This document shows, in pieces, positions 32,239 to 36,327 of a stretch of 64,000 nucleotides of DNA. Source of the stretch: Polyangium sp. 15x6 (GTDB lineage: Bacteria > Myxococcota_A > Polyangia > Polyangiales > Polyangiaceae); assembly GCF_029960785.1 (NCBI RefSeq), contig NZ_JASBQE010000001.1:62001-126000 (forward strand), read 5' to 3'. The position numbers were made by a program, and so were the translations under genes. The notes beneath the pieces are model-generated. The model did no database searches. It was not told the DNA's origin and saw nothing but the letters and a program-made list of their open reading frames with translations. How positions within the stretch are numbered: position 1 is the first letter of the stretch; every line of letters begins with the position of its first letter.

Positions 32239-34953
32239 TTACTTCATGCGGCGAACGATGTCGCGCAGGCCCGGATCCGCCCCGGCCCAGGCCTTGTCCA
32301 CGGCGGCGTCGAGCACGCGCGCATCGTCCGTCTTTCCGGCCGCGCGGAAGAGCTCCGCGAGCCGGACGCGCGCCGCGATCGCGTCGAACGGCGCGTCCCA
32401 CGGCTGCACGAGGCAGTCCCGGTACGCGTCCTCCGCTTCTTTCTTCGAACCGCGCTTTTCCAGGGCGAGGGCTGCTTCGAACTCGCCTTCCGCAGCGCGC
32501 GCGTCTCCCTTCTCGCGCCCGAGCAAGCGACGGATGCGGAGCTCGTCCTTGGCGAGCGCCTCCGCTCGTTGTTCGCGTCCGAGGGCCTTCTGCCGCCCGA
32601 TTTCGAGCTTCCACGCCGCGAGGGCGTCGTCCACGCGGCCGGAGAGCAGCATCGCGCCGATGCGCAACGTGGCGCCTTCGTGGTTCGCCTCGGGATCGGG
32701 TTCGCCGAGCAGCTCCTCCGCGGTCGCGATCGCCGCCCGCCCGTCGAGCGAGGCGAACGCGACGTACGCTCGATCCCGGGCGATCTCCGCGCGCGTCGCC
32801 GTCTCCACGCCGAGCGCGCCACGGATCTCGACCGCCTCGCGCGCCTCCTCGATGCGGCCTGCTTCGAGCAGTCGTTCGGTCCACCGGCCCCGCATCTCCG
32901 GCAGCACCGCGCCCATCCAGCCAAGGAAACGTGAAAACCGCGGATCGTCGTCGTCCACCGCGGGGAACGCGCAGCGCAGGATCGGCAGCGCCATCGTGGG
33001 CCAGCGTTTCGCCAGCCAGTCGGCCATCGGCAGCGTCTGATCCGTCACGATGCACCCGCACGACGTGTAGAGCGCCGCGAAATCCGGGTCCTCCGCGAGC
33101 TCGCCGTACGACTGGATCAGGAGCGACACGCCACGCTCGGTCTCCGCCTCCGAGGCGGGATGAACGTACGTCCTCAAAACACCTTCGAGCAGGGTCGCGC
33201 GACCCTTGGATAAACTCCCGAGCCGCCCGAGTGCGGTCTCCTTTGCCGCCGAGGCTCGTGCCGACTCTCCCTTGCGCCGAAGATCACACGCGAGGAGCGC
33301 GTGCGCCACGGCCGAGCCCGGGTCTGTCTGGACGAGCGCCTCCGTCTCGACGCCGTCCCACTCCGCGAAGCCGAAGGCGCGCCGCCGCACCACGCGCTCG
33401 ATCCGGCGCGCGCTCTCCGCGTCCGATACACCCCACCAAACGAGGTGCTCCTTCGACGGAGCCGGCCGGCCGAGCGCCGGCAGGAGCGCCTGGATCGCGG
33501 CGTTCGTCGCGGCGATCGGCGTCTCGCCTTTGCCTTCGGCCTTCTTTCCGGCGATCGAGAGCGTGACCGTCGTGCTCCCCTCGCCGATCTCCGCGTTCAC
33601 GTCGAGCTGCGTGCCGGGTTCGTTCTTCCAAACCACGCCGAGCTCGACCGCGAGGCGCGCGCAGGCGCCTTTTCCGAGCGCGTCGGCGAGTTTTTCCGTC
33701 GCGCCCGGCCCCGTGATCGTCGCGGCCGCGCACTGGACCGCCTCGACGATCGCGCGCGGCGCGGGCGAAGGCGGCGGCGTGGGGGCCTCCGACGTTCGTC
33801 GCAGGAGCATCCAGGTATTCAAGGCGAGCACGGCGATCCCGACCGCCGTCGCGACCCTCCGCCCGAGCGCGCGTTTCTGCGCCTTCGGCCCCTCCGCGGG
33901 CGCCTGCGAGACCGCCGCGGCCTCCGGAACCGTGACGACCTGCGGGTTTGGCAGGGCCATCTTCTCTTCGCCCCCGAGCGAGAGCGTTCGCGTCCGCTCC
34001 TGCGCGGGCGCGACCTCGGGCACCGTCTCCGCCTCCCGCGAGGCCGCGCGCGCGGGCGGCTCCGGCGCCGCCTGCATCGCGCTCTCCGCCTTCACGTCGA
34101 GCGCGCGCGCGAGCGCCTCGGCGGCCGCGCCCGCGCTCGGGAAACGATCCTCGGCCTCCTTCGCCGTCGCCTGCGCGAACCACGCGTCGAACGCGGCGGG
34201 CAGCGTGACGCCGGACTTCGCCGCGCGTTCCGAGGCAGGCTCCTTCGGCCCGTCGAGCGTCGTCAGCGCGAACGAGAGCGTGTTCTCCGACGCCCGCGCC
34301 TCGTCGGCCCAGTACTCGCGCCCGACGAGCAGCGAATACGCCACCATGCCGAGCGCATACACGTCCACCTTCGGACCGACCTTGCCGTTCCGGAGCTGCT
34401 CGGGCGCCATGTAGAACGGCGTCCCCACGGCCGAGGTCGTGCCCGCCGTCTCGGCGACGCGCTTCACCACGCCGAGATCGAGCAGCTTGATGCGCGGCGC
34501 CTCGCCCGCGCGCTCCGCGACGAACAGGTTCGAAGGCTTGAGGTCCCGATGCACGATCGACGCGGCGTGCAGCGCATCGAGCCCGCGCGCGGTCTGCGTG
34601 ATCCACGTCGCGACCTCTTCGGGTGGCAGCCGCCCGAGCCGCGACTTCCTGCGACCGAGGTCCTCGCCGCGGAGCAGCTCCATCACGAGGAACGGGCTCT
34701 CGGTCGCTTCATCGACGCCGGCGTCGAGCACCTCGACGACGTGCGCGCTCTCGATGAGCGCCGCGGCGCGCGCTTCGAGCCGGAACCTCTCGCGGAGCGC
34801 CGCGCTCTCGGCCACGTGCGGCAGCATCACCTTGAGCGCCGAAGGCCGATCGGTCTCGAGGTGCTGCGCCTCGTAGACCTCGCCCATACCGCCCGCCGCG
34901 ATTCGACGTACGATCCGGTAACGTCCGGCGAAGACCGTGTTCTCGGCTAGCAT
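32239..34953 (-). CDS. Membrane Ser/Thr protein kinase with TPR-like outer region
   Basis: The 904-residue protein has an N-terminal kinase domain (about residues 10-270): Gly loop IAAGGMGEVYEA, Lys in ALKVML, catalytic loop VHRDLKPSN, metal-binding DLG (LLDLGVVK) and activation segment GTPFYMAPEQ. A Pro/Glu linker leads to a transmembrane helix near residue 373 (VATAVGIAVLALNTWMLL). About 500 residues follow, mostly helical repeats (GKTDDARVLDAAVDKAW). The outer region may sense envelope signals. It starts at ATG 34953 and is first in an operon with the FHA regulator. Confidence 0.93.
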   Translation of the reverse strand: MLAENTVFAGRYRIVRRIAAGGMGEVYEAQHLETDRPSALKVMLPHVAESAALRERFRLEARAAALIESAHVVEVLDAGVDEATESPFLVMELLRGEDLGRRKSRLGRLPPEEVATWITQTARGLDALHAASIVHRDLKPSNLFVAERAGEAPRIKLLDLGVVKRVAETAGTTSAVGTPFYMAPEQLRNGKVGPKVDVYALGMVAYSLLVGREYWADEARASENTLSFALTTLDGPKEPASERAAKSGVTLPAAFDAWFAQATAKEAEDRFPSAGAAAEALARALDVKAESAMQAAPEPPARAASREAETVPEVAPAQERTRTLSLGGEEKMALPNPQVVTVPEAAAVSQAPAEGPKAQKRALGRRVATAVGIAVLALNTWMLLRRTSEAPTPPPSPAPRAIVEAVQCAAATITGPGATEKLADALGKGACARLAVELGVVWKNEPGTQLDVNAEIGEGSTTVTLSIAGKKAEGKGETPIAATNAAIQALLPALGRPAPSKEHLVWWGVSDAESARRIERVVRRRAFGFAEWDGVETEALVQTDPGSAVAHALLACDLRRKGESARASAAKETALGRLGSLSKGRATLLEGVLRTYVHPASEAETERGVSLLIQSYGELAEDPDFAALYTSCGCIVTDQTLPMADWLAKRWPTMALPILRCAFPAVDDDDPRFSRFLGWMGAVLPEMRGRWTERLLEAGRIEEAREAVEIRGALGVETATRAEIARDRAYVAFASLDGRAAIATAEELLGEPDPEANHEGATLRIGAMLLSGRVDDALAAWKLEIGRQKALGREQRAEALAKDELRIRRLLGREKGDARAAEGEFEAALALEKRGSKKEAEDAYRDCLVQPWDAPFDAIAARVRLAELFRAAGKTDDARVLDAAVDKAWAGADPGLRDIVRRMK

Positions 34954-35055: not shown

Positions 35056-35871
35056 ATGGTTACCTTGGAGGATGGGAAGCGATGGTGCGCCGCCCTCGCC
35101 CTCACGCTCGGCGCATTCGCTTGCTCGTCGGGCGGCGGAGAGAGCTCGGGCGGCGAAGGCGGCGCGGGAGGCGTGGCGGGCCCGGGATCGGGCGGGAATG
35201 CGGGGACGATGACGGTCGCCTCGTCCTCGTCGAGCGTGGGCGCCGTCGCGAGCTCGGCGGCGAGCGTGGGCTCCGGCGGCGCCGGCGGCACGATGTCGTT
35301 CGTATGCGACCCGCCCGCCGAGCCGGGCAGCTTGTACGAGCATTCGGTCGAGTCCTACGACGTGAACGACCTCGAACCGGTTCCGCTCTGCAAGTACCGC
35401 GGCGAGGTCCTGCTCATCGTCAACACCGCTGCCGCTTGAGGCTACACGCCGCAATATGCGGGCCTCCAGGTCTTGGAGGAAAAATTCAGCGGTCAGGCTT
35501 TCCACGTGCTCGGCTTCTTGAGCAACGATTTCGGCAATCAAGGAGGTTCGGACGAACAGATCGGCGGGTGCATCGACAGCTATCATTTGAGCTTCAAGCA
35601 ATTCGCGATCGATCACGTCAAGGATCCGGACGGCGCCGGGCCGGAGGTGCCGCAGCCCGTCTGGCAATGGATCCTCGCGCAGCCGAACCCCGGCCCCGCG
35701 CCCACGATCGAGCCCTTGTGGAACTTCCACAAGTACCTGATCTCGAAGGACGGAAAGCTCGTGGCGGAGTGGACCTCGTCGACCTACCCCGGCGACGATC
35801 CGCAAAACCCGAACGATAGCTTCGATACGAACCCCATCGTCCAGGCCATCCAGGCCGAGCTCGCCAAATAA
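35056..35871 (+). CDS. Glutathione peroxidase-like selenoprotein (TGA-encoded Sec128)
   Basis: This thiol-dependent peroxidase of the GPx family would reduce peroxides. The frame from ATG 35056 (GGAGAGG eight bases upstream) runs through one TGA at 35437-35439 to the TAA at 35871, giving 271 residues. The TGA falls exactly at the catalytic position (LLIVNTAAA-Sec-GYTPQY). The rest of the active site is conserved: Q162 (DFGNQ), W222 and N223 (EPLWNF). A stem-loop with apical GGTCT follows the TGA. The N-terminus is a lipoprotein-like signal (GAFAC, near residue 23) and a Gly/Ser linker, so the enzyme probably acts in the envelope. No sel genes lie in this window. Confidence 0.88.
35437..35480 (+). 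promoter_or_regulatory. Selenocysteine TGA and bacterial SECIS-like stem-loop
   Basis: Downstream of the TGA (35437-35439), CCTCCA (35463-35468) pairs perfectly with TGGAGG (35474-35479) around the loop GGTCT (35469-35473). As I recall it, this is the apical GGUCU loop of the E. coli fdhF SECIS, whose G and U contact SelB. The first loop G is 29 bases after the last base of the TGA, further than in fdhF but within the range bacteria use. A smaller hairpin (CCGCA-ATA-TGCGG) lies between. Confidence 0.75.
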
Positions 35872-35880
35872 CGATTCGTT

Positions 35881-36327
35881 TCAGCGCGCGTGTCGGTGCT
35901 CGACCATCAAGCAACGATCCTGCACGACCTCGATCCCCGCGTCGGCGAGGCGTGCGGCGGCCTCGTCGTTGCGAATGCCCGACTGGAACCAGACGACCTT
36001 CGGGCGTTTCGCGAGGATGTCGTCCACGTGCGGCGGAATGTCGCTCGGGCGCCGGAAGACGTCGAGGATGTCGATCTCGCCGGGCACGTCGGCGAGGCGC
36101 CGATAGACGGGTTGACCGAGGATGCGCGTGACGTCGGGGTAATAGACGGGGACGGGGACGATGTCGACGCCCGCGCCCTGGAGATACGCGGGCACGTAGT
36201 ACGCAGGCTGGCCTGCTTGCTGCTCGGTCTTGATGCCGAGGACGGCGACACGCCTCGCATTGCGGGCGATCTCCGCGATGCGGCGGCTGTCCGTGACGAT
36301 GCGACCCTTCGGTTCGGCTGTGGCCAT
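35881..36327 (-). CDS. CoA-binding domain protein
   Basis: The 148-residue protein is a stand-alone Rossmann-type CoA-binding domain (YccU/HcgD-like): RVAVLGIKTEQQAGQPAYYVPAYL, VPVPVYYPDVTRILGQPVYRRL, VDILDVFRRPSDIPPHVDDIL and WFQSGIRNDEAAARLADAGIEVVQDRCLMVEH. Relatives bind CoA or nucleotides, but their cellular role is mostly unknown. The ATG at 36327 begins the conserved part. It is convergent with the selenoprotein gene and ends 10 bp from it. Confidence 0.92.
   Translation of the reverse strand: MATAEPKGRIVTDSRRIAEIARNARRVAVLGIKTEQQAGQPAYYVPAYLQGAGVDIVPVPVYYPDVTRILGQPVYRRLADVPGEIDILDVFRRPSDIPPHVDDILAKRPKVVWFQSGIRNDEAAARLADAGIEVVQDRCLMVEHRHAR

What the first reader, a model, noticed from the sequence alone, without database searches (positions are those of the whole stretch)
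35056..35871. Glutathione peroxidase with TGA-encoded selenocysteine
Seen: one frame reads through a single TGA (35437) placed exactly at the catalytic residue of a GPx. Gln162, Trp222 and Asn223 of the GPx tetrad are conserved, and a 6-bp stem with loop GGTCT follows at 35463-35479. Known: bacterial SelB reads a SECIS stem-loop just after UGA, and the E. coli fdhF loop is GGUCU as I recall it. Inferred: this is an envelope-linked selenoprotein GPx, which automatic annotation would split into two proteins. Sec-GPx is uncommon in bacteria, and a lipoprotein form is unusual.
Basis: partly seen in the sequence, partly recalled or inferred. Interest (0 to 1): 0.88.

Follow-up and report, generated by a model that had tools for sequence, protein, structure and literature searches.

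The report
Selenocysteine peroxidase lipoprotein in Polyangium
A gene in a soil bacterium (likely genus Polyangium) has the stop codon TGA exactly where peroxidases of its family carry their catalytic residue, and the cell likely reads that TGA as selenocysteine to make a predicted surface-anchored peroxidase, which two close relatives encode with ordinary cysteine at the same place.

Summary
One frame (35056-35871) crosses a single TGA (35437-35439) inside a GPx domain (Pfam GSHPx, E 1.2e-16). The genome has tRNA-Sec, SelB, SelA and SelD. Of 183 genomes of the order, 13 were found with TGA at this codon; 12 of the 13 have selB, against 43 of the other 170. All 13 carry the same stem-loop 29 nt after TGA and meet the published bacterial SECIS rules; 2 of 17 Cys genes do, both with another hairpin. 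In two genomes of the genus the codon is TGT, in genes with the same neighbours; two further substitutions break the SECIS loop and stem, although selB and tRNA-Sec remain. The protein has a likely lipoprotein signal, a low-complexity linker, the GPx tetrad, and a conserved Cys172 aligned with the cysteine I recall as the resolving one of yeast Hyr1. So it is likely a selenocysteine, resolving-cysteine GPx on the cell envelope. Bacterial Sec-GPx is a known family; my searches found no mention of a myxobacterial lipoprotein form. Sec insertion, anchoring and reductant are untested.

The parts
35056..35871 (+). Sec-GPx gene, 271 aa read through TGA plus TAA stop
35056..35124 (+). Likely lipoprotein signal peptide; lipid-attached Cys23 would be codon 35122-35124
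   Evidence: sequence; a loose lipobox pattern fits 18 of 19 orthologous loci, the N-terminus of the 19th (L029) lying outside its frame
35125..35295 (+). Gly/Ser/Ala-rich linker, predicted disordered
   Evidence: pLDDT about 43-51
35305..35307 (+). Cys84, conserved; possible structural disulfide with Cys112
   Evidence: an equivalent Cys in 19 of 19 loci; the disulfide is a guess
35389..35391 (+). Cys112, conserved
   Evidence: an equivalent Cys in 19 of 19 loci
35437..35439 (+). In-frame TGA, predicted Sec128 (UxxT motif: U-G-Y-T)
   Evidence: TGA at this codon in 13 genomes, TGT in G148 and G149
35463..35479 (+). SECIS-like hairpin: stem CCUCCA/UGGAGG, loop GGUCU
35539..35541 (+). Gln162 of the GPx tetrad
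35569..35571 (+). Cys172, likely resolving cysteine
   Evidence: its role in Hyr1 is recalled
35719..35724 (+). Trp222-Asn223 of the GPx tetrad
33284..34953 (-). Neighbour: protein kinase, divergent from the GPx gene (stretch translated; its C-terminus may lie further on)
   Evidence: Pkinase E 6.5e-43; same place in 4 of 4 other Polyangium loci
35881..36327 (-). Neighbour: CoA-binding domain protein, convergent with the GPx gene
   Evidence: CoA_binding_2 E 1.4e-35; same place in 4 of 4 other Polyangium loci

Best explanation
The gene has TGA at the catalytic codon of a glutathione-peroxidase domain, followed by a conserved hairpin that meets the published bacterial SECIS rules, and the cell's own SelB and tRNA-Sec likely insert selenocysteine there, giving what is predicted to be a lipid-anchored envelope peroxidase. 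Shown: the frame, the TGA/Cys correspondence, the conserved hairpin, the selA/B/C/D set, and the failure of the hairpin rules in the two congeneric genes that have TGT. Inferred steps: (1) SelB on the hairpin brings Sec-tRNA-Sec to the UGA, so 271 aa are made instead of a 127-aa stump; (2) signal peptidase II cuts before Cys23, the protein is lipidated, and the catalytic domain sits on a flexible linker of about 60 residues outside the inner membrane; (3) Sec128, with Gln162, Trp222 and Asn223, reduces H2O2 or lipid hydroperoxides; (4) the oxidised Sec forms a selenenylsulfide with Cys172, which a thioredoxin-like envelope protein reduces.
For: Frame and domain. tRNA-Sec, SelB, SelA, SelD. TGA at the same codon in 13 genomes of 183, 12 of 13 with selB against 43 of 170. 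Hairpin rules met in 13 of 13 TGA genes and 2 of 17 Cys genes (rules from PMC13188914). In the two TGT genes the loop and one stem pair are changed while neighbours and Sec machinery are kept. The Leu codon on the 3' arm is never the common CTC in 13 TGA genes, but is CTC in 10 of 17 Cys genes. GPx fold. Cys172 conserved.
Against: Nothing measured. The hairpin's energy is ordinary and 6 of 7 pairs never vary, so covariation has no power (193 of 500 shuffles reach the score). G082 has the TGA gene but no selB or tRNA-Sec hit; it is 86% complete. The lipobox (AFAC) is not the textbook LxxC form (recalled). gshA- and gshB-like genes are present, so glutathione may be the reductant. No other selenoprotein was found in the genome, by a partial search.
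Confidence: 0.9

Rival explanations
1. The TGA is a true stop and the gene is a decaying pseudogene, or makes only a short exported peptide.
For: Standard code reads TGA as stop; no product has been measured. One genome with the gene (G082) shows no selB or tRNA-Sec hit.
Against: The frame after TGA is intact and conserved in 13 genomes, always with TGA at this one catalytic codon; the hairpin is kept; the Sec machinery is present.
Confidence: 0.03
2. The TGA is read through by another residue (Cys or Trp by a near-cognate tRNA) and not by the Sec machinery.
For: TGT replaces TGA in two close relatives, so Cys works there.
Against: Co-occurrence with selB and the SECIS-type hairpin, which fails the rules once the codon is TGT.
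Confidence: 0.03
3. Sec is inserted, but the enzyme is a GPX4-like enzyme reduced by glutathione or another small thiol, with Cys172 not taking part.
Against: An equivalent of Cys172 is kept in 19 of 19 loci scanned and aligns with the Cys of Hyr1 that I recall as its resolving cysteine. Whether glutathione reaches this envelope is unknown.
Confidence: 0.3

Closest known systems
Bacterial GPx-like selenoprotein family (PF00255, UxxT; Treponema denticola GPx in PMC1794560, five sequences in PMC1088965)
   Same: GPx domain, Sec codon at the catalytic position, UxxT motif, bacterial SECIS after UGA
   Different: Here a likely lipoprotein with a long linker and two extra conserved cysteines, in Polyangiaceae. 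Whether the known bacterial members have a signal or a resolving Cys was not tested.
Cys orthologues in Polyangium fumosum (G148, L050) and G149
   Same: 94% identical over 271 residues, same two neighbours, selB and tRNA-Sec present
   Different: TGT in place of TGA; SECIS loop and one stem pair changed
Thioredoxin-type GPx: yeast Hyr1/Gpx3, poplar GPX5 (type recalled)
   Same: Fold, and a Cys aligned with Cys172 in Hyr1
   Different: Those carry Cys at the catalytic residue (Hyr1) and have no lipoprotein build (recalled); here FPCNQFG reads FLSNDFG, so the Cys of that motif is missing
Human GPX4 (Sec)
   Different: Eukaryotic SECIS in the 3' UTR; no equivalent of Cys172 (both recalled)

Membership tests
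Bacterial selenoprotein | In-frame UGA aligned with Cys of homologues | tested here: met
Bacterial selenoprotein | SECIS after UGA: loop 3-9 nt, stem 4-16 bp, G in first two loop positions, spacing 16-37 nt, MFE -7.5 or lower (PMC13188914) | tested here: met
   Loop 5, stem 6, spacing 29, -8.0 kcal/mol; 13 of 13 TGA genes, 2 of 17 Cys genes (my own script, not bSECISearch)
Bacterial selenoprotein | selA, selB, selC and selD in the genome | tested here: met
Bacterial selenoprotein | Selenium in the protein | not testable with these tools
   needs 75Se labelling or mass spectrometry
Glutathione peroxidase (PF00255) | Pfam GSHPx above its cut-off | tested here: met
   60.6 bits against 27
Glutathione peroxidase (PF00255) | Catalytic tetrad Sec/Cys, Gln, Trp, Asn | tested here: met
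   residues 128, 162, 222, 223
Glutathione peroxidase (PF00255) | Peroxidase activity with glutathione | not testable with these tools
   gshA- and gshB-like genes present; no assay
NCBIfam GPx equivalogs (NF007900, TIGR02540) | Score over the curated cut-off | tested here: not met
   80.4 of 270 and 60.8 of 207.3 bits: not filed under these named subfamilies
Thioredoxin-type GPx | Resolving cysteine in the helix after the Gln motif | tested here: met
   Cys172 aligned with the Cys of Hyr1, conserved; reduction by thioredoxin untested
Bacterial lipoprotein | Signal peptide ending in a lipobox Cys | tested here: inconclusive
   AFAC at Cys23; a loose pattern fits 18 of 19 loci; no dedicated predictor was available

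The most novel reading that the evidence does not exclude
An envelope-anchored selenoperoxidase lineage of myxobacteria that runs on a Sec128-Cys172 selenenylsulfide reduced by an envelope thioredoxin system, and that has switched between Sec and Cys several times while the hosts kept the whole Sec machinery. The closest relatives of the window are caught shortly after a Sec-to-Cys switch, with the SECIS broken by only two substitutions: a natural experiment on why selenium is kept or dropped.
Probability: 0.45. Interest if true: 0.7.

Novelty: new variant of a known kind. Interest (0 to 1): 0.52.

Why it matters
Standard gene calling ends such genes at TGA, so a likely antioxidant enzyme would be missing or cut in the protein lists of the 13 genomes found here. 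Sec-GPx is best known from animals (recalled); a bacterial envelope form with a likely resolving cysteine would show another way to run a selenoperoxidase. The Sec/Cys pair inside one genus (94% identical, same neighbours, same Sec machinery) gives a matched pair for testing what selenium adds. A 2006 survey (PMC1794560, passages and table rows seen) found few Sec-to-Cys replacements, mostly in FdhA and SelD, and lists none for GPx.

Tried and rejected
Folding energy as evidence: rejected, z -1.11. Covariation: no power, as 6 of 7 pairs never vary. A second, upstream hairpin in the window fold (CCGCA/UGCGG) is not kept in the same form in the other TGA genes, so I left it out.

Six more genes flagged with TGA (G173, G098, G102, G077, G064, G009) all have TGC or TGT at the catalytic codon; the TGA codons in their aligned stretches lie 40 or more codons upstream. 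They were not counted as Sec genes. The match list is cut at its end, so weaker TGA genes could be unseen.

Search for other selenoproteins in the genome: no TGA inside the 7 Molybdopterin (PF00384) hits; the best selD hit has no stop inside. The SECIS model found this gene, a Cys-GPx gene and no further convincing gene, but only 150 of 11055 candidates were scored, and I looked at 11 of its 17 matches. What keeps the Sec machinery in the two TGT genomes is unknown.

In the tree two catalogue proteins (P0013, P0016) were dropped because my pattern did not find their catalytic Cys, and of the 120 listed I entered only 15 (P0002-P0012, P0014, P0015, P0017, P0019). Sec genes cut at TGA tend to be missing from protein catalogues, so Cys rows are over-sampled.

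Absence from print rests on searches in one open-access library (searches gave long lists of which 20 of 64 and 15 of 113 were shown); subscription papers are not held. Read: passages of PMC13188914, PMC9312934, PMC1794560, PMC1088965 and PMC12013277, and section 8 of PMC13188914; no whole paper.

Full report

The host and its machinery. G000 has one tRNA-Sec over the family cut-off (71.3 bits, anticodon TCA). selB lies beside it on the other strand and has the SelB winged-helix domain. SelA scores 490.4 bits and SelD 391.6 bits.

Conservation of the TGA. In 183 genomes of the order, 131 had a match at E 1e-10 and 19 of the listed matches were flagged with one TGA. In 13 the TGA is the catalytic codon; in the other 6 that codon is TGC or TGT. 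The list was cut at its weak end. A wider draw of 377 genomes of the phylum at E 1e-30 gave matches in 18 genomes; its five TGA rows are all among the 13. selB is found in 12 of the 13, against 55 of 183 overall (Fisher p 2e-6, kinship not corrected). The exception, G082, is 86% complete and has no tRNA-Sec hit either, while G083 of the same genus has both. Of 12 genomes tested for tRNA-Sec (nine with the TGA gene, two with TGT, one without an orthologue), 11 have it.

The hairpin. [quoted passage not shown] test by my own script). 13 of 13 TGA genes pass; of 17 Cys genes 2 pass, both with a different hairpin at another position. All 7 pairs form in 13 of 13 TGA genes; the innermost pair is GU in 6, GC in 5 and AU in 2. 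This is not formal covariation. Given the amino acids and a codon usage counted from 1699 codons, 5-10% of synonymous sequences would form all 7 pairs (6 of the 13 genes tested). The Leu codon on the 3' side is TTG in 8 and CTG in 5 TGA genes, never the common CTC, which is used in 10 of 17 Cys genes. Results against: the fold alone is unremarkable (z -1.11), and shuffles reach the covariation score in 193 of 500.

The natural experiment. G148 and G149, 94% identical to the window protein, have TGT. Their hairpin carries two further substitutions, loop GGU to GGC and GAG to GCG, which break the U-A pair and change two residues, V to A and E to A. The kinase and CoA-binding neighbours are the same in 4 of 4 other Polyangium loci, two TGA and two TGT, and were not found in the 8 more distant loci apart from one weak kinase match. 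So the swap likely happened in place. Both TGT genomes still have selB and tRNA-Sec. In a tree of 45 rows with the catalytic column masked, the Polyangium Cys rows (G148, G149, P0002; support 99/92) nest inside Sec rows. Sec/Cys needs 6 changes over the tree, at least 4 on well supported branches. Direction is clear only in Polyangium, where the flanking rows are Sec.

How it likely works. Inferred: SelB delivers Sec at UGA; the product is exported, lipidated and held on a flexible linker; Sec128 reduces peroxides with Gln162, Trp222 and Asn223. A Cys stands at +44 from the catalytic residue in all 13 TGA genes, and at +41 or +44 in 6 of 6 Cys orthologues scanned. It aligns with the Cys in 'QFCQLNYG' of Hyr1, which I recall as its resolving cysteine. 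A Sec-Cys selenenylsulfide reduced by a thioredoxin-like protein is thus my preferred cycle. gshA- and gshB-like genes exist, so glutathione remains possible. Equivalents of Cys84 and Cys112 are also kept in the 19 loci scanned and could form a structural disulfide; this is a guess, and the model's coordinates were not at hand to measure it.

Against the known. GPx-like selenoproteins (UxxT) are a listed bacterial family (PMC13188914 and PMC9312934). PMC1794560 counts one, in Treponema denticola; PMC1088965 reports five in the Sargasso Sea. None of the passages seen mentions myxobacteria. Searches for Sec-GPx with myxobacteria and for selenoproteins with Myxococcota found no paper, and the one paper holding Polyangium and selenoprotein is on Burkholderia. 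The gene is a member of that family by the tests that could be run. The likely lipoprotein build, the four conserved Cys/Sec positions and the in-genus Sec/Cys swap make it a variant.

Noticed in passing
G148 and G149 (loci L020, L019, L066, L067): Both genomes have the TGT (Cys) form but keep selB and tRNA-Sec, so some other selenoprotein likely maintains the machinery; it was not identified.
   Followed up: partly
G152 (same genus): Has selB and tRNA-Sec but no close orthologue of this GPx (best hit E 9.3e-26, no stop inside), which suggests gene loss in one Polyangium species.
   Followed up: no
P0018 (catalogue protein, 149 aa): A protein named glutathione peroxidase by its source begins just after the place of the catalytic residue (VYTPQEAGLQVLENTF), as a Sec gene cut at its TGA would.
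   Followed up: no
G000:C4:28082-28480: The genome also encodes a Cys-type GPx, so the Sec enzyme is not its only GPx.
   Followed up: no
G000:C66:163809-165061: selB and tRNA-Sec lie head to head about 60 bases apart; in G150, G148, G149, G152 and G083 the two are likewise close together.
   Followed up: no
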